Translations under genes and position numbers: made by a program
Shown: piece by piece, positions 41,338-52,596 of the stretch
Numbering within the stretch: position 1 is the first letter of the stretch
Layout: each line of letters opens with the position of its first letter
Assembly (NCBI GenBank): GCA_019117085.1
Contig: DXAJ01000033.1
Span: 1-52,596, forward strand
Direction of reading: 5' to 3'
Length of the DNA: 52,596 nucleotides
Origin: Candidatus Gallimonas gallistercoris
GTDB lineage: Bacteria > Bacillota > Clostridia > Christensenellales > Borkfalkiaceae
The notes under the pieces: generated by a model
Databases searched by the model: none
The model's input: the letters and a program-made list of their open reading frames with translations, nothing else
What the model was told of the DNA's origin: nothing

Positions 41338-41625
41338 GGCAGTAGGAATTTACTCTGCTTTCAAGAAAAACCCCCGCAAAGATGTTCTCGCAGGCAAGGG
41401 GCTCTGATAGCACCTCGCCGGTGGGGCAGCACCTGCCGGTGAGGCAGTAGGAATTTACTCTGCTCTTACGAAAGCTCCCGCACCTGCCGGTGAGGCAGTA
41501 GGAATTTACGCTGCTTTCGAGAAAAACTCCAGCAAAGATGTTCTCGCCGACAAAGGGGCTCTGCAAAACGCCTCGCCCACCTGCCGGTGAGGCAGCAGGA
41601 ATTTACGCTGCTCTTGCGAAAATAC
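41325..41625. repeat. Array of four imperfect repeat units downstream of yggS
   Basis: Four copies of a unit beginning CACCTGCCGGTGAGGCAG and continuing TAGGAATTTAC start at 41325, 41430, 41481 and 41578. CTGCC-GGTGA-GGCAG can form a hairpin in each. Copies 1 and 3 are followed by a related 'GAAAAAC...GCAAAGATGTTCTCG...GGGGCTCTG' segment, and copies 2 and 4 by another (CTTACGAAA/CTTGCGAAA), so the array has a higher-order pattern. The remaining bases to 41708 hold only the next ribosome binding site. Confidence 0.85.
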
Positions 41626-41708
41626 CCGCAAATTTGTTCTCTCGGGCAAATAGCTCCGAGATGATCGCCCCACACCCCCGAAACCATAACAAACAAGAAG
41701 GAGAATTT

Positions 41709-42614
41709 ATGCCATCCGCCATCACCCATCAGCTTGTCGCCGAAGAGGCGCAAAAGCTCCTCCCCGAAGGGTTGCAGCACATCATCGAGCGCGCCCCCGA
41801 CGAATATTTCCTCGGCTGTCAGGGGCCCGATATGTTCTTTTTCTACCGCATCGGCAGCCGCAGCGAATATAACCTCGGAAAATTTTTGCACCGAAACCGC
41901 CCGTACGACGTGTTCCGCCTCTTCTGCCGCATCCTCTCGGGCGAACAGAACGCCCGCTTCCCCGTCTATTCGGACGAGGACCGCACGCGCGCCTTTGCCT
42001 ATATCCTCGGCTATATCGCCCACTACGCGACGGACAGCACCTTCCATCCCTTCGTCTACAACTATATGGAAGAGGAGAAGAGCGAAAAGCGCGTGCACCA
42101 GCTCATTGAAAACGACTGGGACGTGCATTTCCTGCGCAAGTTCCGCGGGCGGGAGGCGGAAAAGTTCCGCTGTGCGTTTTCGCCCAAAAAGATCGCAAAG
42201 AACGCCGCCGTTGCCCGCCTCTACGCCTGCCTTGCCGAAGAACTCGGCCGCGAGGAAGTAAAAAAGAGCAAATTCAACGCGGGGCTCAACAATTTCTGGC
42301 GGTATCTCACCTTCTTCCACGGGAAGTGCTATTCCTCGCAGCGCGCATGGGCGAAACTCGAACGCTTTTTCCGCGCAAAGCCCTTCCTCTCCTGCCTCTA
42401 CCCGCGCAAGCACCCCGACCCCGAATACCTCGCCCTGGACGGCTTTTCGCGCCTTTCGGAGGGCAAGGGCGGGAATGCCGACGAACTCTTCGACCGAGCC
42501 CGCGACGAGAGCGCACGCCTTGCCACGCTCTTCTGCGAATGCGTCCGCAGCGGAACGCCCCTTCCGCGCGAAGACTTCTCTTTGAGCTTCCTCACCGCTA
42601 AGCCCGTGGAATGA
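41709..42614 (+). CDS. Zinc-dependent phospholipase C-like protein
   Basis: A 301-residue, mostly helical protein of the Zn_dep_PLPC type. Putative metal ligands include His7 in SAITHQLVAEEA, Asp41 in QGPDMFFF, and the block YILGYIAHYATDSTFHPF (about 97-114) with its His and Asp. There is no signal peptide and no N-terminal Trp, unlike secreted clostridial phospholipases C, so it is probably cytoplasmic with an unknown substrate. The start at 41709 has AAGAAGGAG; the upstream open frame lies in the repeat array and is rejected. Overlaps the next gene by four bases. Confidence 0.85.
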   Translation: MPSAITHQLVAEEAQKLLPEGLQHIIERAPDEYFLGCQGPDMFFFYRIGSRSEYNLGKFLHRNRPYDVFRLFCRILSGEQNARFPVYSDEDRTRAFAYILGYIAHYATDSTFHPFVYNYMEEEKSEKRVHQLIENDWDVHFLRKFRGREAEKFRCAFSPKKIAKNAAVARLYACLAEELGREEVKKSKFNAGLNNFWRYLTFFHGKCYSSQRAWAKLERFFRAKPFLSCLYPRKHPDPEYLALDGFSRLSEGKGGNADELFDRARDESARLATLFCECVRSGTPLPREDFSLSFLTAKPVE

Positions 42615-43699
42615 GCGAAATGAAACAGCGGCGCCATGGTCTTTCTTCCCAACTCGGGCGCGTCCTGCGGCGCATCCGCACGCCCTTATACACCCTTCCG
42701 AAAGAAGACGCGGCGGGATACTGCCGCAGGTTAGCCGCGCTGCTTGCCTCGGGGATGCCATTCCCCGAAGCATTGCTTTATGCCGCAGAGGGCGTGCGCC
42801 GCCTCACGCGGGCAGCCATAAGGCTGAAAGAAGCCGTGCTTGCGGGCGTTCCCCTATCCGAAGCCCTCGCCCGCGAAAAGTTCCCCCGAACCGCCGTGCA
42901 GTTCTGCCTGCTTGCGGAAAGAAGCGGGAACTATCCGCGCGGGCTCATGCTCGCCGCCGAGGCATTGGAACGGGAAGTGCGCGAAACCGCTGCGCGCGGC
43001 AGCACGCTGTATCCCGCCCTGATGTGCGCGGGGCTTCTGCTCCTTTTTGTGCTCTTTTCGGCGTTTGTCTTCCCCGCCTTTGAGAAGGCGTTCTCCTCGC
43101 TCTCCATCCCCCTGCCACCCCTGACGGAAACGCTTGCCGCCGCAGGGACATGGCTGCTGACAAACATCGTTTGGCTGCTCCCCGTCCTAGGGGCCGCCGC
43201 CCTGCTGCTCTTTTTCGTGAGCCGCCTCCCCGCCGTGCGGCTGCGACTGGACGCGCTCAAATTGCGCTCCCGCGCCGAACGCTGCAAAATCGCCGTCCGC
43301 TTCTGCCGCATGCTCCCTCTTCTTCAAGAGGGAGGGGCGACCCTCCCCGAAGCGCTCACATGTTCCGCCGCGCTCCTTCCGAACGCCCGCGCGGCGCGCG
43401 GCATCCAACGGGCGGCGGCGCGCCTCTTGTCGGGCGAGCCCCTCTCCCACACCCTCGCACAGGAGAAGCTCTTCCCCGCCTTCCTTGTCGCGGCGATCGC
43501 GGCGGGCGAGCGGTCCAACAGCATCGCATCCCTTCTTCAAAGCGTCCTTCCCGCCTTGGAACGCGAGCGTGAGACGGCAGTTCGCCGTTCCTCCGCGGTG
43601 CTCAAAACGCTGCTCCTATGCCTTGCCGCCGCCGAGATCGTGCTTCTGTTTGCCGCGCTCTACGCGCCCATCCTGACGCTCTTCGCCTCCGTACTCTAA
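42611..43699 (+). CDS. Type II secretion system F-family membrane protein (PilC/ComGB-like), orphan
   Basis: A 362-residue protein with two T2SSF domains: the first cytoplasmic domain about 38-135 (YCRRLAALLASGMPFPEALLYAAE; LLAERSGNYPRGLMLAAEALE), helices at about 137-160 and 180-205, the second domain about 225-330 (CRMLPLLQEGGATLPEALTCSA; AIAAGERSNSIASLLQSVLPALERE), and a last helix at about 337-357. Such proteins are inner-membrane platforms for type IV pili or competence pseudopili. No ATPase, pilin or peptidase gene lies nearby. It shares a four-base overlap with the phospholipase-like gene. Confidence 0.88.
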   Translation: MSEMKQRRHGLSSQLGRVLRRIRTPLYTLPKEDAAGYCRRLAALLASGMPFPEALLYAAEGVRRLTRAAIRLKEAVLAGVPLSEALAREKFPRTAVQFCLLAERSGNYPRGLMLAAEALEREVRETAARGSTLYPALMCAGLLLLFVLFSAFVFPAFEKAFSSLSIPLPPLTETLAAAGTWLLTNIVWLLPVLGAAALLLFFVSRLPAVRLRLDALKLRSRAERCKIAVRFCRMLPLLQEGGATLPEALTCSAALLPNARAARGIQRAAARLLSGEPLSHTLAQEKLFPAFLVAAIAAGERSNSIASLLQSVLPALERERETAVRRSSAVLKTLLLCLAAAEIVLLFAALYAPILTLFASVL

Positions 43700-43774: not shown

Positions 43775-44176
43775 TTATGCGGCACCCACCGTCTCATACA
43801 AGATGAGGAACACGACGGAAACGGCGATAAACGCCAATCCCACGATGAGCACATAGGAAACGCTGCGCTTGCGGTCCTTGCGCGCCTCGCGGTAGTCATA
43901 GAACGTCTTGTATTTACGCTCCACCTTGGAGGACTTGAACGTATACCACAGCAGCGAAACGGCATAGCCGAGCATATCAAACACGCCCCCGTTGCTTGCG
44001 ACGACGATGAGCCCGCCGCAGGTGAGGAAGACGCCCGAAACGAAGAAGGCGTCGCACCAGATCTGCATGGCGACCGCAACGTCCGTCTCCGTAAAGCCGT
44101 TCTTCAGAACGGCGATGAGGAGCGCGATCAGGAACCCGACGCATGCCGTGATAAGATAACGGTAGACCGTCTTCAT
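43775..44176 (-). CDS. DUF3899-like small membrane protein
   Basis: A 133-residue protein with about four membrane segments: MKTVYRYLITACVGFLIALLIAVLKNGF at the N-terminus, a second pair around VSGVFLTCGGLIVVASNGGVFDMLGYAVSLLWY, a basic cytoplasmic stretch (KSSKVERKYKTFYDYREARKDRKR) and a final helix. It resembles DUF3899 proteins, which have no known function. It starts one base after the oppF stop and ends the operon at the terminator, so it is probably an accessory to the peptide transporter. Confidence 0.72.
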   Translation of the reverse strand: MKTVYRYLITACVGFLIALLIAVLKNGFTETDVAVAMQIWCDAFFVSGVFLTCGGLIVVASNGGVFDMLGYAVSLLWYTFKSSKVERKYKTFYDYREARKDRKRSVSYVLIVGLAFIAVSVVFLILYETVGAA

Positions 44177-44177
44177 A

Positions 44178-45461
44178 TCAAAGACCGAGCTCTTCCTTAT
44201 ACTTTTCGAACTCCGCGCCGTTGCAGTAGATGAAGTGCCCCGGCGTGATCTCTCGCATCGTAGGGCCTTCGACGGAATAATCGTGCTCGGCGAGCGGGTT
44301 GTAGGTGATGCGGCGGCGCTGCTTTTCGTACTGCGGATCGGGCAGCGGGATCGCGGAAAGGAGCGAACGCGTGTAGGGGTGCAGCGGGTGTGCGAACAGC
44401 TCGTCGGAGGGCGCAAGCTCGACCATCTTGCCGAAGTACATGACGCCGATACGGTCGGAGAAGTACTTGACGACGGAAAGATCGTGCGCAATGAAGAGCA
44501 CGGTGATGCCCAACTCGCTCCTCAGATCGTTCAGAAGGTTGATGACCTGCGCCTGGATGGAAACGTCGAGCGCGGAGACGGGCTCGTCGGCGATGATGAG
44601 CTCGGGCTCCATGATGACGGAGCGCGCGATGCCGATGCGCTGGCGCTGCCCGCCCGAGAACTCGTGCGGGTATCTGCCTGCGTGCTCGCGGACAAGACCG
44701 ACCTTTTCGAGGATGTTATACACCTTCTCATCGATGTAGTCCTTGTCCTTGATGCCGTGGATGATGAGTCCTTCCGCGATGATGTCGCGCACGGTCATAC
44801 GAGGATTGAGCGAAGCGATGGGATCCTGGAAGATCATCTGGATGCGGTTGACGATGCGCTCGTGGCTCGCGACGTGAAGGCGCGTCTTATAATCCTTCTC
44901 GACCTTCTTCCGCTCTTCGTCCGAAGAACAGGCGGCAAGCGCCTTCTCGCGCTCCTCTTTGAGCGCCGCGACGACTTTTTCCGCATGATCCTTATCGCAG
45001 AAATTCTGATCGTGCTTGGCGGAGGCGATGAGCTTCCTGTTTTCGAGAACGGCGGTGCGGTACTGTTCCTCCGCCTCGGCGCGCAGCTTTTTGTTGAGTT
45101 CTTCGGCCTGCGCCTTGTCGGCGCCCTGCTCGATCTCTTCCTTCTTCTGCTTGTCGAGAGCGGAGATCTTTTCGCGGTAAGCGGTGCGCGCCGCACGGAT
45201 GGCCTCTTTATAAGAGCGCGTGCCCGCGCAGATGCGCTGCCCCTTGAAGTAGACGTTGCCCGAAGTGATGTCATAGAGCTTGATGATGGAACGGCCCGTG
45301 GTCGTCTTGCCGCAGCCCGACTCGCCGACAAGGCCGAAGACCTCGCCCTTCTTGATGTCGAAACTGACGTCGTCGACCGCTTTGAGTTCGCGCCCGGGGC
45401 CCATCTTGAAATATTGACAGAGATGTTCGACCTTCAACAAGGTCTCTTCCTGATGTTCCAT
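44178..45461 (-). CDS. oppF: Oligopeptide ABC transporter ATP-binding protein OppF, with coiled-coil insertion
   Basis: A 427-residue ATPase powering peptide import. Walker A GESGCGKT (46-53), Q-loop IFQDP (Gln212), signature FSGGQRQR (about 268-275), Walker B LIIADEP (288-294), H-loop His326, then the oligopeptide C-terminal segment ([19 protein letters not shown]). Walker A to Q-loop is normally about 45 residues; here it is about 160, because residues about 80-200 form a charged, heptad-like helical insertion. All catalytic motifs are intact. Four bases separate it from oppD. Confidence 0.93.
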
Positions 45462-45465
45462 GATG

Positions 45466-47712
<2,247 letters not shown>

Positions 47713-47713
47713 A

Positions 47714-49276
47714 TCAGTCCTCCGAGCCTCTCAGCGAAGGGTTGAACGCATCGCGCAGGCCGTTGCCGAACAGGTTGAAGCTCAGCATGAGCAGCACGAG
47801 GAAGAGCGACGGGAAGAGCGACATATAGGGCGCCGTGGCTAGATAGGACTGGCCCGCGTTGATGAGGGTACCCACGCTCGTGATGTTGCCCGTCGACAGG
47901 TTGATGATGCCGAGGTAGGAAAGGCTGGTCTCGGAGAAGATCATCGAAGGGATGACGAGCGCGCAGCTCGTGACGAGCGTACCCAACGCATTGGGGAAGA
48001 TATGCTTCCAGATGATGCGGCGGTCCTTTGCGCCCAGCGTCCTCGCGGCGAGGACGTACTCCTGATTCTTATACCGATAGAACTGCATTCGCGTCCGCGA
48101 CGCCATACTGATCCACCCTGTGATGAAGAAGGCGATGAACAGCACCAATATCTGACTCGACCCGCCCATATGCAGTTTGAGCAGGGTGATGACGATCATC
48201 GACGGCACGGAAGCGAGGATATCGGAAACGCGTTCCATCACGAGGTCGATCTTGCCGCCGTAATAGCCTTCGATGGAGCCGTACACGGCGCCGAAGATGA
48301 GGTTGACGGCAGCAACGACGATCGCGAAGATGAAGGAGAACCGCGCGCCCGAAGCAAGGCAGGTCAGAATATCCTGCCCGGAACCCGTCGTCCCGAAGAG
48401 GAAGTAGGGCTCGGTGATGCCGTCCTGCAACACATAGCTGTGATAGTAGATATAATACTCGTAGTAATTGACGCGCACTTCCACGCCCGAAGAGGTGCGG
48501 CGCGCATACATATAGTAATACGTCTTGCCGTCTTCGCCGACAAACCCGTCCTCTCCCTCGATGCGCATTTTGGAAGTATAGCCGTCGGTGGCCTCCGTGC
48601 CCGCCTCATACGTCCAATAGACGGGGATGACGTTCCCGTCTTCATCATAGACGATCTGCGTGCGGTTGGTGCCTTCCGTCTTGTAATAGTAGTTGGCGTT
48701 GTTCTGATCCTGCTGCGCCTCGGGACGGTCGGCCGTGCGGACGGTGGGATAGATGACCTGTCTTCCCGTCTCATCCTGATACCGCATGAGGTTCTCGTAC
48801 TCCTGCGTGGTGAGGTTGGAATAGATCATGCCCGTCTTATGATAGCTGTCGAGACGGTAATGATACATATCCTCCTCGTCGACGGAGAACTCCTGGTTCT
48901 TGACGGCATAGTGTCCGGTCTCCTGCCCCATCGCGTAGTAATACATGAAGGTGAGCTTCCCGTCCACGCGCGCCTCGCAGCCGTCCCAAAAGGACGTCTC
49001 TGCGAACATCTTGTTCTTGGGCAGCGTCACGACGTAGTAGGTATCGTTATATGCAACGGTGTACTGCGTGAAGAAGGGCACGATGATGGCAAAGAGCACC
49101 AAAAAGAGGATGACGCACGCGCCGACGACCGAACCCTTGTTCTTGCAGAAGCGCGAGAAGGCGTCGCGCATATAGCTGCGCGGCTTGGTCTCGAGCTTCT
49201 TGTCGTGCGAAATATCGCGCGCATCTGCAAACTCGAATTTTTCCTTCGGGATGTTGGTGTAAGCCGTGTTTTCCAT
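47714..49276 (-). CDS. oppC: Oligopeptide ABC transporter permease OppC with large outer domain
   Basis: A 520-residue permease, against about 300-340 normally. TM1 is at about 50-70; the extracytoplasmic segment up to the conserved FGTTGSGQDILTCLASGARFSF (about 294-315) is about 240 residues, some 200 more than usual, rich in Tyr, Thr and Asn. The usual HPFGTDQLGRD motif is altered to FGTTGSGQD. The rest is normal, with the ATPase-docking loop YVLAARTLGAKDRRIIWKHIFPNA (about 408-431). It is one base after oppB. Confidence 0.93.
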   Translation of the reverse strand: MENTAYTNIPKEKFEFADARDISHDKKLETKPRSYMRDAFSRFCKNKGSVVGACVILFLVLFAIIVPFFTQYTVAYNDTYYVVTLPKNKMFAETSFWDGCEARVDGKLTFMYYYAMGQETGHYAVKNQEFSVDEEDMYHYRLDSYHKTGMIYSNLTTQEYENLMRYQDETGRQVIYPTVRTADRPEAQQDQNNANYYYKTEGTNRTQIVYDEDGNVIPVYWTYEAGTEATDGYTSKMRIEGEDGFVGEDGKTYYYMYARRTSSGVEVRVNYYEYYIYYHSYVLQDGITEPYFLFGTTGSGQDILTCLASGARFSFIFAIVVAAVNLIFGAVYGSIEGYYGGKIDLVMERVSDILASVPSMIVITLLKLHMGGSSQILVLFIAFFITGWISMASRTRMQFYRYKNQEYVLAARTLGAKDRRIIWKHIFPNALGTLVTSCALVIPSMIFSETSLSYLGIINLSTGNITSVGTLINAGQSYLATAPYMSLFPSLFLVLLMLSFNLFGNGLRDAFNPSLRGSED

Positions 49277-49277
49277 G

Positions 49278-50285
49278 TCACCTTGCCCCCATTCGTATTC
49301 TCGGGTCGATGAACCCGTAGCTGATATCCGTCACGATGCCCGCCAAGAGGCCGACGAGCGTATAGAAGCCCGAAAGCAGCATGAAGAAGTCGTAGTCCTG
49401 ATAGGTGATGGAGTCGAGATACAGTCTACCGACGCCGGGGATGGAGAACATCCTCTCGATGACGAGCGAACCCGAAAGCACGAGAACAAACTCACTTAAG
49501 ATCATCGGGAAGATGGGCACCATCGCGTTGCGGAGCGCGTGGCGCAGCGTCGCCTGGCCGCGCGTCAAGCCCTTCGTGCGGGCAAGCAGCATGAACTCGC
49601 TCGTCAGCACTTCGGTGAGCTCTGCGCGGGTGAAGCGGGCATAGCCTGCGATCGAACCCAAGCACAGCGAAAAGACGGCGGGCAGCATACTGCGGAACAT
49701 CGGCCAGGTAAAGTAGTTGAAGCCCGAATTCATCGTCAGCGGGAACCAACGCAGCTTGAAGCAGAAGACATACTGCACGATGAGGCCGAGGACGATGGAC
49801 GGCACCGAGATGAGCAGGATGATGAAGACGGAAATGACCTGATCCTGCCACTTGTTCTTCTTGAGTGCGGCAAAGATGCCGAGCCCCAAGCCGATGGGCA
49901 CGCCGATGAGCGTCGAATAGATGTTGATGAGCACCGTGGGGGGCATCTTCTCCATGAAAATATCCCAGACGGGCTGATTGCGGTATTCCGCCATCGAAAC
50001 GCCGATGCCGAAGTCGCCCTGGAAGATACGCTGCAAGTAAAACCCGAGCTGCTTTAAGATGGGCACGGTATCGTAGCTCCAAAGCTGTGTCGCAGAGTCG
50101 TAGACGACGTTGCAGATATACCCTCTCGCCTCGAGTTGACCGTAGATGATGTTCGCGTCCTGCCCGATCTGGACAGTGACGACGATGGGCAGGAGCTTGA
50201 TGAGGACAAAGCACATCAGCATGATGATGCAGAAGGTCATCAGCATCAGCCCCAGCCGCTTTAATACATACTTGAACATGTACAT
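49278..50285 (-). CDS. oppB: Oligopeptide ABC transporter permease OppB
   Basis: A 335-residue permease with TM1 at about 11-31, a first outer loop of about 80 residues, and the core permease domain; the EAA-like loop is FMLLARTKGLTRGQATLRHALRNAMVP. PGVGRLYLDSITYQDYDFFMLLSGFY is typical of the C-terminus. Length is near normal, unlike its partners. AAGGAG precedes the start. Confidence 0.94.
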   Translation of the reverse strand: MYMFKYVLKRLGLMLMTFCIIMLMCFVLIKLLPIVVTVQIGQDANIIYGQLEARGYICNVVYDSATQLWSYDTVPILKQLGFYLQRIFQGDFGIGVSMAEYRNQPVWDIFMEKMPPTVLINIYSTLIGVPIGLGLGIFAALKKNKWQDQVISVFIILLISVPSIVLGLIVQYVFCFKLRWFPLTMNSGFNYFTWPMFRSMLPAVFSLCLGSIAGYARFTRAELTEVLTSEFMLLARTKGLTRGQATLRHALRNAMVPIFPMILSEFVLVLSGSLVIERMFSIPGVGRLYLDSITYQDYDFFMLLSGFYTLVGLLAGIVTDISYGFIDPRIRMGAR

Positions 50286-50368
50286 GGTAGTTTGCTCCTT
50301 TGGTTTGGTCGCGGAGAGCGGACGCCCTTCCGCCGCGGCGCGGGAGCACCGTGTAAAAACAGGAACAA

Positions 50369-50396
50369 GCGGGGGCGGAAATCGTTCCGTCCCCGC
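50369..50396 (-). terminator. Hairpin between oppA and oppB
   Basis: Read leftward: GCGGGGACGGAA, loop CGAT, TTCCGCCCCCGC, followed by TTG and a T-run some ten bases further. It may act as a partial terminator or 3' stabiliser, letting oppA mRNA exceed that of the membrane genes. The rest of 50286-50427 holds no gene. Confidence 0.65.
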
Positions 50397-50427
50397 TGTG
50401 TTCTGAGCGTCAGATCATCCGAAAAAC

Positions 50428-52596
50428 TCAGTTGGTCTTCTTGTACTCGGTCGAAAGGTCGCCGCCGTTCTCGTTGACGAAGTTTACCCACTCCTCATCC
50501 GAATAGTTGCGGGTCATGTAGCGGTAACCGCCGAAGCCCATGAAGATGTTGTACTCATCGGTGAGATAAGACCACTTCGCACCCGTGACCGTCGCGTTAA
50601 CTTCGGACGTCGTAGCGATCGTGTAGTACTGCTCAAGGGTGATCTCTTCCAGCTTTGCGGTCAGCTCAAGGCGGGCTTCTTCGGGAATGAAGCCTGCGCC
50701 CCAGTTGTAGGTGTTGGGCTGATCGTAAGCTTCCGCCATACCGTTCAGGCAGCAGTACCAGTTGAAGAGGCTCATCGTGAACGTCTGACCCGCTTCGGCA
50801 TAGTCGCCTTCGGGCATCGTGAATTCAAGCATTTCGTGTGCGGTATCCCACCAGGTCGAATACATCAGGCCAGCTTCGGGATCGAGATAGCACTGCAGGA
50901 AGCCGGAGGGATCGAGCGCGCCGCCCGTGAAACCGGTGCCGGCAGCGATATCGTAAGCGCCCGAACGGAAATCGGTCGCCCATGCGGAACCGAAGGATGC
51001 ATCGAACGTGACGTTGATCTTGCCCTCGAGCGAGGTGCCCTGGACCATCGTCTCGATCGTCTTCTTGATGTAATCAAAGTTGCGGCGGGTGCTGTCGATA
51101 TCGCTAGCGGTACCGTAGACGAAGGTGATCGGCTTGGAATCATCGTAGCCGTACTCTTCGGCATTCTCGGTGAGTTCCTTGTAAGCGGACTCCACGAGCT
51201 CCTTGGCGAGCGTGGGGTTGTAGCCGTTCATTGCCTCGTAAGCTTCTTCGTAGTCGGAATAGGTGTTAGTGCCGTCCGTCCAGGAGCCGTCCGCATTCTC
51301 GGTGAAGCCGTAGACGCGGAGCAGCGCTTCCTTTGCATAGACGGTATCGCGGTACACGCCCTTGTTCTCGACATCGTAGTAATAAGCGGGACCAAGGAGG
51401 CCGAGCAGGGACTCGTCTGCCGTGTAGACCGTTGCATTGTAGTCGTCTCTGTCAAGGGACAGGGAGATCGCCTTACGGAAGTCGCGGATGGCGAGGATGC
51501 CGTTGTTGCGGCCGTTCTCCTTCAGAACGTCGAGGTTTGCATACAGGTTCATACCGAAGGAACCGGTGCCGGGCGCAAAGTAGGTGTACTTGGAATCTCT
51601 GTAATCTGCCTTGTGCGTGACGTCGAGACCGATCTCATCAAGGTTGCCGCTGAGGAAGCTCATCCATGCGGTGTTGATATCGGAGATCTGCTCGCACTCG
51701 ATGCGGTCGATCTCATACTGACCCTTATTGTCTTCAAGGTCGTAACCGAACCAGTTGTCGTTGCGCTCAAGCGTATAGGACTTACCGCTCTGGAACTGGG
51801 TCAGCTTGTAGGGGCCCCAGCTTGCAGACGTCTCGAGGGAAGTGTTGTAGTTGGTGGTCCAAAGAGTAGAACCTGCAACAGGCTCCTGCTTGCACTTTTC
51901 ATAGAGATCCTTCTTGACGAGAGGGAAGCTCTGGAAGCTGTAAGCTGCCTGATAGGAGAGGGAGCCGTCTTCCTTCTTCAGCTGGATGGGCGTATCCATG
52001 CAGACGACAAGCTCATACTTGGAAGGCGAATAGTAACCGACCTGATCATACGTCAAGCCGTACGTATCGTTTTTGGTATAGATCATGAGGAGCGAGTCGT
52101 CCATGTAAGGCGTACCGTAGTAGGTCTCAAAGAGCACCGCACCGGAGAACGCATCAACAGCAGTACCGGAAGTCCACGCATCAGGCGTATCATAAACGGT
52201 CTCATCGGTGATGGAAACGTACTGAGGGCACTCGTTGCCATCGGCATCGACATAACCCTGTGCGCCATAGAAACTCCACACATCAAACAAGAGAGTCTCG
52301 CCGGCATCGAGAGCTTCCTGATAGGTCTCATAGCCTTTCGTCGCGAAGTTGACATAGACCATCTCATCAAGGCTGAACACGTAGTTACGCGCATTCTTGA
52401 TCTGGATGTTGTTATAATAGGTGGAAGCACGCATGTTCTTGAAGGTAGGATCAAGCTGCTGCTGCATCGTGTAGACGAAGTCGGTCGCATCGATGGGCGT
52501 GCCGTCGTCCCACGTCAGGTCTTCGCGCAGCGTGATCTTCCAGGCATAGCCGCCCATTTCCTTCTGCGCATCGGTATAGCCCCACTTCGCATCGAC
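50428..52596 (-). CDS. oppA: Oligopeptide-binding protein OppA (SBP family 5), 5' end outside window
   Basis: At least 722 residues of a family 5 extracellular binding protein. The family signature WKITLREDLTWDDGTPIDATDFVYTMQQ is near the visible start; GPYKLTQFQSGKSYTLERNDNWFG and ALSLDRDDY-type (AISLSLDRDDYN) segments follow. In E. coli OppA only about 430 residues follow the first signature, so this one is about 290 longer, with extra sequence before GPYKLTQF and in the C-terminal lobe. The frame is open to 52596, so signal peptide and lipobox lie outside. It should capture peptides for OppBCDF. Confidence 0.93.
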   Translation of the reverse strand, partial: VDAKWGYTDAQKEMGGYAWKITLREDLTWDDGTPIDATDFVYTMQQQLDPTFKNMRASTYYNNIQIKNARNYVFSLDEMVYVNFATKGYETYQEALDAGETLLFDVWSFYGAQGYVDADGNECPQYVSITDETVYDTPDAWTSGTAVDAFSGAVLFETYYGTPYMDDSLLMIYTKNDTYGLTYDQVGYYSPSKYELVVCMDTPIQLKKEDGSLSYQAAYSFQSFPLVKKDLYEKCKQEPVAGSTLWTTNYNTSLETSASWGPYKLTQFQSGKSYTLERNDNWFGYDLEDNKGQYEIDRIECEQISDINTAWMSFLSGNLDEIGLDVTHKADYRDSKYTYFAPGTGSFGMNLYANLDVLKENGRNNGILAIRDFRKAISLSLDRDDYNATVYTADESLLGLLGPAYYYDVENKGVYRDTVYAKEALLRVYGFTENADGSWTDGTNTYSDYEEAYEAMNGYNPTLAKELVESAYKELTENAEEYGYDDSKPITFVYGTASDIDSTRRNFDYIKKTIETMVQGTSLEGKINVTFDASFGSAWATDFRSGAYDIAAGTGFTGGALDPSGFLQCYLDPEAGLMYSTWWDTAHEMLEFTMPEGDYAEAGQTFTMSLFNWYCCLNGMAEAYDQPNTYNWGAGFIPEEARLELTAKLEEITLEQYYTIATTSEVNATVTGAKWSYLTDEYNIFMGFGGYRYMTRNYSDEEWVNFVNENGGDLSTEYKKTN

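What the first reader, a model, noticed from the sequence alone, without database searches (positions are those of the whole stretch)
44178..52596. Oligopeptide transporter in which four of five core subunits are enlarged
OppA (>720 residues), OppC (520), OppD (748) and OppF (427) are all far above family size while OppB (335) is near normal. Each carries a distinct insertion at a different structural place, all catalytic motifs are kept, and the five genes plus a DUF3899-like gene are spaced 1-4 bases apart after oppB. Parallel growth of binding protein, outer permease domain and both ATPases suggests co-evolved new contacts, for example a cytoplasmic helical assembly joining OppD and OppF and an outer platform for OppA. 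This is my best candidate for an undescribed system.
Basis: partly seen in the sequence, partly recalled or inferred. Interest (0 to 1): 0.75.

Follow-up and report, generated by a model that had tools for sequence, protein, structure and literature searches.

The report
Peptide importer with four enlarged subunits
A peptide-import machine of uncultured gut bacteria carries large extra domains in four of its five proteins; the set is old and mostly inherited together, but the parts outside and inside the cell behave as two separable halves, and what the extra domains do is not known.

Summary
The operon oppA-B-C-D-F plus a DUF3899 gene is intact, except that oppA is cut by the contig end. Insertions sit in OppC (TM1-TM2 outer loop), OppD (about 388 residues between Q-loop and signature), OppF (about 114 between Walker A and Q-loop) and OppA.

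33 named loci share the OppD insertion. In 200 genomes of the order, OppD-insert and OppC-insert profiles hit 33 and 34, 32 in common; contig ends explain two mismatches, a different outer half the third. A phylum sample of 398 gave only the own genome and one marginal hit. Insert-bearing OppD cores form one clade beside normal-sized systems. AlphaFold2 predicts folded insertions in OppD (helical) and OppC (alpha/beta).

One network of co-evolved contacts is not supported: insert distances and lengths do not co-vary beyond the cores (a weak test), three loci carry a different A-B-C half (two of them with ordinary D-F in view), and other Opp systems of the order have single insertions. Unexpected: in six relatives the OppF insertion contains two predicted transmembrane helices.

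Verdict: a real variant of the Opp importer, restricted to one order as far as sampled; I found no description of it.

The parts
50428..52596 (-). oppA, substrate-binding protein, 722 aa held, 5' end cut by the contig end; 787-1019 aa in complete relatives of the order sample
   Evidence: PF00496 107.5 bits; contig end; complete relatives; additions of about 100 residues at one place plus smaller ones against the normal-sized OppA of L216 and L134
49278..50285 (-). oppB, permease subunit, 335 aa, near normal size
   Evidence: PF00528; complete relatives 316-369 aa in the named loci
47714..49276 (-). oppC, permease subunit, 520 aa
48407..49057 (-). OppC insertion, residues about 74-290, between TM1 and TM2 (outer face by known OppC topology)
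   Evidence: hydropathy; AlphaFold2 block pLDDT 81-93, alpha/beta; profile A4
45466..47712 (-). oppD, ATPase, 748 aa
46177..47343 (-). OppD insertion, residues about 124-512, between Q-loop and signature; predicted all-helical
   Evidence: spacing 446 against 58; alignment A3, window plus 32 loci; AlphaFold2 block pLDDT 61-95, mostly 80-95
44178..45461 (-). oppF, ATPase, 427 aa
   Evidence: PF00005 and PF08352
44874..45206 (-). OppF insertion, residues about 86-196, between Walker A and Q-loop, charged and probably helical (by eye)
   Evidence: spacing 166 against 52; alignment with the TM-bearing relatives. No structure was predicted for OppF
43775..44176 (-). DUF3899 gene, 133 aa, four hydrophobic stretches
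   Evidence: PF13038 57.5 bits; hydropathy; present in 32 of the 33 genomes with the OppD insertion and in 6 of the other 167

Best explanation
It is a functional Opp-type (type I ABC) peptide importer. From a normal-sized Opp operon, probably one that already had a linked DUF3899 gene, one stem lineage gained domains at four sites, and the operon has since been inherited mostly as a block within one order (the tool's GTDB order, unnamed). The additions fall into two modules. The outer module is the OppC outer-loop domain with the enlarged OppA: the OppC domain most likely serves as a platform on which OppA docks, much as the P2 loop of MalF does for maltose-binding protein (recalled). The inner module is a helical arm on each ATPase: the OppD arm in the helical subdomain, and an OppF arm that points to the membrane in some relatives; they most likely tether or regulate the ATPases, possibly with each other or with DUF3899. 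Shown: genes, sites, joint presence, separability of the halves, purifying selection. Predicted: the folds in D and C and the membrane helices. Inferred: peptide import, OppA docking, the role of the arms.
For: Domain content and gene order. Joint presence in the named loci and in a 200-genome sample. Insert-bearing OppD cores on one side of a branch (SH-aLRT 90), nearest to the normal-length OppD of L216 and L134 (99; quick tree); L216 has DUF3899, A616, B321, C383, D352, F321. Folded insertions on an intact ATPase and permease fold. A-B-C differing as a block while D-F stay: L190 against L189 has D 84%, F 82%, but B 46%, C 40%, A 28%; L055 and L190 share B 69% and C 57% although the closest D and F of L055 among those compared are those of L185/L186 (76-78%). 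Two hydrophobic helices in the OppF insertion of six relatives. dN/dS of the insertions 0.12-0.60 in four genome comparisons.
Against: No experiment. No complex model, so neither docking nor arm contacts are shown. No insertion matches a Pfam or NCBIfam family over its cut-off. The quick tree was used because the careful search did not finish, and the clade's support is 90, under the tool's 95 mark. Insertions evolve faster than the cores in 11 of 12 comparisons, which would also fit loosely constrained spacers. DUF3899 also occurs in 6 of 167 genomes without the insertion; of its three over-cut-off cases one (G370) has no Opp gene recognised within the 12 kb read.
Confidence: 0.55

Rival explanations
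1. One reading: the four insertions form one co-evolved network joining OppA, OppC, OppD and OppF.
For: Close co-occurrence; single origin of the OppD insertion with the C, D and F insertions already in the deepest branch L059; D and F insert lengths correlate if the tree is ignored (Spearman 0.58).
Against: The length correlation vanishes on the tree; no distance co-variation beyond cores (weak power); A-B-C differs as a block against D-F in L190 and L055.
Confidence: 0.12
2. Neutral or lineage-wide growth: lineages of this order tend to gain and tolerate insertions in permeases and ATPases, and the set stays together only because an operon is inherited as a block.
For: In 20 other Opp/Dpp loci of the window's order (15 genomes, chosen by OppD similarity), 4 have a large OppD insertion without one in C or the F ATPase core (L100, L107, L108, L113; L100 also has a large OppB), 2 a large OppC (L110, L111; L110 with 41 extra residues in D), 1 OppC plus OppF (L116); several of these have long OppF tails. 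OppC of L188 grew to 1001 aa with repeats; Lys/Ala-rich tails on several OppD.
Against: The OppD insertion keeps its length (349-394 residues) and 48 invariant or nearly invariant positions over 33 sequences, is predicted as folded, and is under purifying selection.
Confidence: 0.27
3. It is the Mycoplasma-type enlarged Opp system, known already.
For: The best NCBIfam matches of OppD and OppF are the models NF043079 (468 bits) and NF043078 (406.6 bits); OppF insertion at the same interval.
Against: Both are far below the curated cut-offs 740 and 800. The OppD of G202 (L118), which passes the OppD model at 756 bits, has its insertion between Walker A and Q-loop, not Q-loop and signature (sequence). 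The OppD insertion of the window alone gives no NCBIfam match. No Mollicute genome itself was read.
Confidence: 0.03

Closest known systems
E. coli OppABCDF / DppABCDF (PDB 8z21, 8z1v-8z1z)
   Same: Five subunits; permease and ATPase folds
   Different: Chains of 300-340 residues, no large insertions. The E. coli Dpp complex shows two [4Fe-4S] clusters (PMC12136057, passages seen); here the OppD tail after the H-loop has 0 cysteines in 64 and 1 in 3 of 67 examined, normal-sized sisters included
Opp3 of firmicutes (NCBIfam NF045471 Opp3B, NF045475 Opp3C)
   Same: Best NCBIfam models for OppB (220.5 bits) and OppC (271.2 bits)
   Different: Both under the cut-offs 480 and 450; the Opp3C model has 328 positions, OppC here 520 aa
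Mollicute OppD/OppF (NF043079, NF043078)
   Same: Enlarged ATPases of an Opp system; OppF insertion in the Walker A to Q-loop interval
   Different: OppD insertion at another site, judged from L118; scores under cut-off
MalF P2 domain of the maltose importer (recalled)
   Same: A large outer-loop domain of one permease subunit; in MalF it contacts the binding protein
   Different: No homology shown; Foldseek matches of the OppC model to MalF are weak (E 0.01-0.03, rmsd 11-14)
SMC/Rad50 coiled coil and ABC-F arm (recalled)
   Same: Helical additions between Q-loop and signature of an ABC ATPase
   Different: Not transporters; SMC_N match 27.6 bits, below its cut-off of 40

Membership tests
Opp/Dpp peptide importer (type I ABC importer) | SBP_bac_5 binding protein, two BPD_transp_1 permeases (OppC_N in one), two ABC_tran + oligo_HPY ATPases in one operon | tested here: met
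   all over Pfam cut-offs; gene order
Opp/Dpp peptide importer (type I ABC importer) | Walker A, Q-loop and signature kept in both ATPases | tested here: met
   motif scan; sequences
Opp/Dpp peptide importer (type I ABC importer) | imports peptides | not testable with these tools
   no experiment
Opp3 subtype (NCBIfam) | scores over the equivalog cut-offs | tested here: not met
   Opp3B 220.5 of 480, Opp3C 271.2 of 450 bits
Mollicute OppD (NF043079) | score over cut-off 740 | tested here: not met
   468 bits
Mollicute OppD (NF043079) | insertion between Walker A and Q-loop | tested here: not met
   window: 56 residues there, insertion lies after the Q-loop; L118, which passes the model, shows the other site
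Mollicute OppF (NF043078) | score over cut-off 800 | tested here: not met
   406.6 bits
Mollicute OppF (NF043078) | homologous insertion between Walker A and Q-loop | tested here: inconclusive
   same interval; insert alone 14.7 bits, E 0.0088
SMC/RecF/RecN (PF02463) | Pfam score over cut-off | tested here: not met
   27.6 bits against 40
MalF-P2-like docking domain | outer-loop domain that contacts the binding protein | not testable with these tools
   location fits; contact needs a complex structure

The most novel reading that the evidence does not exclude
The ATPase arms form a membrane-linked regulatory collar new to ABC importers. In six relatives OppF itself crosses the membrane twice through its ATPase insertion and presents a small outer domain, so the ATPase could sense or touch OppA/OppC directly from outside, with DUF3899 as a further membrane partner; in the window's lineage the arm would reach the membrane without crossing it.
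Probability: 0.2. Interest if true: 0.75.

Novelty: new variant of a known kind. Interest (0 to 1): 0.5.

Why it matters
Solved Opp and Dpp importers have compact subunits. Here one lineage kept a matched set of structured additions on both faces of a peptide importer over many genera, and natural exchanges hint at which additions belong together. It gives a ready system for asking how a binding protein docks and how the ATPases of an importer can be regulated from the cytoplasm or the membrane. Transmembrane helices inside an importer's ATPase domain, if real, would be unusual (my own knowledge; the one paper search on this listed 10 of 34 papers, none on it by title).

Tried and rejected
Mycoplasma-type homology of OppD: rejected, other insertion site and scores under cut-off. 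Known domain in the insertions: none over cut-off in Pfam or NCBIfam; the DUF3592-like match in the OppF of L048 is below cut-off (17.5 of 25.3 bits, 1 of 7 proteins scanned). Co-evolution tests: negative, but mean insert distances of 1.46-1.83 mean saturation, and one of the touching core pairs (D-B, -0.003) was missed too, so the test is blunt. The careful tree did not finish; the quick tree is reported, 97 rows of which 91 differ, with 15 OppD rows skipped because the script did not parse their motifs. OppF of L039 (an unknown residue from a scaffold gap inside) was dropped as chimeric.

Print: seven searches touch this question. 'DUF3899' 0 papers; 'Anaerocaecibacter' 1; Mycoplasma OppD/OppF terms 11; OppD/OppF with domain terms 16, 12 listed; Christensenellales with peptide transport terms, at least 3 of 4, 440, 12 listed, none of the 12 with the order's name; ABC ATPase insertion terms 34, 10 listed; Mollicute OppF terms 62, 10 listed. 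I saw listings and abstract starts only, except passages of PMC12136057. No listed title describes this system; the library lacks most subscription papers and preprints.
Full report
What is there. The operon lies on the minus strand from 52596 to 43775: oppA (cut by the contig end), oppB, oppC, oppD, oppF and a DUF3899 gene, with 1, 1, 4 and 1 bases between the genes after oppB. Pfam assigns every gene over its cut-off. The genome is held as 1.63 Mb in 114 contigs, 84% complete.

Where the growth is. Motif spacing places the OppD insertion between Q-loop and signature (446 residues against 58) and the OppF insertion between Walker A and Q-loop (166 against 52). OppC has one hydrophobic helix at 50-68 and the next at 313-331, so its addition is in the TM1-TM2 loop, which by known OppC topology faces outside. 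OppA has one addition of about 100 residues and several smaller ones relative to normal-sized relatives. OppB is near normal.

How common. A scan of 84,980 species genomes with OppD peptides gave 37 loci; 33 (L031-L063) hold an OppD with the insertion (361-394 residues in 33 of 33), L064 only the first 138 residues of OppD, and L065-L067 are distant ATPases. The OppF insertion is 52-255 residues in 32 of 33 (L039 dropped as chimeric). OppC is 513-632 aa in 32 of 33 (the contig of L043 starts inside oppD). OppA is complete and recognised in 26 of 33, 812-994 aa; three are cut, four were not found, of which L055 turned out to have another OppA. DUF3899 is found in 33 of 33. This set was chosen by OppD, so it cannot test co-occurrence by itself. 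Depositors label some of these MAGs Lachnospiraceae, Roseburia or Oscillospiraceae; I did not check those labels.

Unbiased test. In 200 genomes drawn evenly from the order, the OppD-insert profile hits 33 and the OppC-insert profile 34; 32 are shared. The three mismatches were read: G480 and G527 reach the contig edge in or before oppD, and G421 has a 645-aa OppC whose insert does not match the profile. In 32 fetched loci of the 33 OppD-positive genomes (the window is the other): OppF insertion 27-245 residues in 32 of 32; OppD insertion 349-393 in 31 of 32 (L198 not parsed by the motif scan); OppC 437-1001 aa in 32 of 32 (437 is one piece of a split frame in L200); OppA complete in 28 of 32, 787-1019 aa, three cut by contig ends, and one (L190) not matched by the profile, where a 975-aa ORF lies in its place; DUF3899 in 30 of 32 loci, the others being a contig end (L186) and a copy on another contig (L198). 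By genome, DUF3899 is in 32 of the 33 OppD-positive genomes and in 6 of the other 167, three of these six under the Pfam cut-off. Of the three over it, G430 and G513 have it beside a normal-sized Opp operon, G370 beside no recognised Opp gene. The positives are scattered over many families of the order, so the operon is lost or moved as a unit. In 398 genomes of the phylum only the own genome and one marginal match (E 0.00098) were found.

Origin. In a tree of 97 OppD cores (65 with this insertion, 29 normal, 3 with a Walker A to Q-loop insertion; 91 different) the 65 form one side of a branch (SH-aLRT 90) and the nearest others are the normal-length OppD of L216 and L134 (99) (quick method, midpoint root). 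L216 is a normal-sized operon with a DUF3899 gene in front. In 199 genomes of the phylum DUF3899 was found in 4, the own one included, 3 over cut-off; the two others over cut-off, G254 and G169, have it about 5 kb from an OppD match on the same contig. So the DUF3899 link is probably older than the insertions. The deepest branch, L059, already has the C, D and F insertions; no intermediate was seen.

An ATPase insertion with membrane helices. In six of the 33 named loci (L035, L036, L038, L040, L048, L062) the OppF insertion is 245-255 residues and contains two hydrophobic helices 85-98 residues apart, nested in the same arm as in the window. L048 is the named strain A. muris; L181, from the order sample, has the same OppD and OppF values and is probably the same genome. 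In all, 68 OppF were examined; besides these seven only L203 scored, with a two-helix extension in front of OppF. These are hydropathy calls, not experiments. They suggest that the arm points to the membrane.

Do the insertions co-evolve? Among 56 distinct operons, partial Mantel correlations given the cores are 0.01 (D-F), 0.02 (D-C) and -0.21 (F-C). As yardsticks, cores gave 0.68 (D-F), 0.83 (C-B), 0.14 (D-C) and -0.003 (D-B); D and B touch in E. coli Dpp (PMC12136057, passage), so the test can miss a contact. Length contrasts on the tree give r 0.09 (D-F) and -0.06 (D-C), not significant, 54 tips; without regard to the tree D-F lengths correlate at 0.58.

A natural exchange. L190 (G421) matches its relative L189 (G454) at 84% in OppD and 82% in OppF but 46% in OppB, 40% in OppC and 28% in OppA. 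Its OppB and OppC match L055 best among the operons held (69%, 57%), and its OppA matches those of L055 and L064 (47-49%). L055's OppD and OppF are closer to L185/L186 (76-78%) than to L190 (70-71%). The break lies between oppC and oppD. In L064 the contig ends inside oppD, so its D-F half is not seen. OppA, OppB and the OppC domain thus seem to travel together, and D-F with their arms occur with either outer half. I read this as an outer and an inner module rather than one network; gene trees were not built, only identities compared.

Other systems of the order. Of 20 further Opp/Dpp loci (15 genomes, chosen by OppD similarity), four have a large OppD insertion without one in OppC or the OppF ATPase core, two a large OppC (one with 41 extra residues in D), one OppC and OppF, four a small OppD addition of about 65 residues; nine show none of these (OppF of L114 not parsed). 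Several have long OppF tails. Growth of single subunits is thus common here; the fourfold set was seen only in this family.

Selection. In four genome comparisons dN/dS of the insertions is 0.16-0.45 (D), 0.16-0.60 (F) and 0.12-0.23 (C), against 0.08-0.20 for the cores of C, D and F; the insertion value is the higher in 11 of 12 pairs, the exception being OppC of L034, where dS is saturated. The insertions are constrained, mostly less than the cores.

Judgement. I file it as a new variant of the Opp importer. The mechanism is a commitment, not a result: outer platform for OppA about even odds, regulatory arms somewhat less.

Noticed in passing
L035, L036, L038, L040, L048, L062 (OppF): Two predicted transmembrane helices nested in the ATPase insertion of OppF, with a weak DUF3592-like stretch in L048 below cut-off.
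   Followed up: partly
L203:7856-10309: OppF of 817 aa with an N-terminal extension of about 380 residues bounded by two hydrophobic helices.
   Followed up: partly
L190, L055, L064: Alternative outer half: another OppA-like protein (975 aa with a Big_2 domain in L190), OppB and a larger OppC; D-F seen in L190 and L055 is of the ordinary kind.
   Followed up: partly
L188:5753-8758, L184: OppC grown to 1001 and 782 aa; in L188 the outer loop holds repeats of the kind 'Y-DADGN-L'.
   Followed up: no
L038, L040, L044, L048, L058 (OppD C-terminus); L055 (OppF C-terminus): Long Lys/Ala/Thr/Pro-rich tails.
   Followed up: no
L100, L118, L219: A second enlarged Opp type with OppB of 527-531 aa and an OppD insertion between Walker A and Q-loop; the OppD of L118 passes the Mycoplasma OppD model.
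   Followed up: partly
window 45466-47712 (OppD tail): The cysteines of the usual OppD C-terminal motif (motif recalled) are absent in this OppD and its normal-sized sisters, while some paralogues of the order (L101-L107, L109) have 5-7 cysteines there.
   Followed up: partly
window 42611-43699 and 41538-42614, + strand: Next to the operon: a T2SSF (type II secretion protein F) gene and a zinc-dependent phospholipase C-like gene.
   Followed up: no
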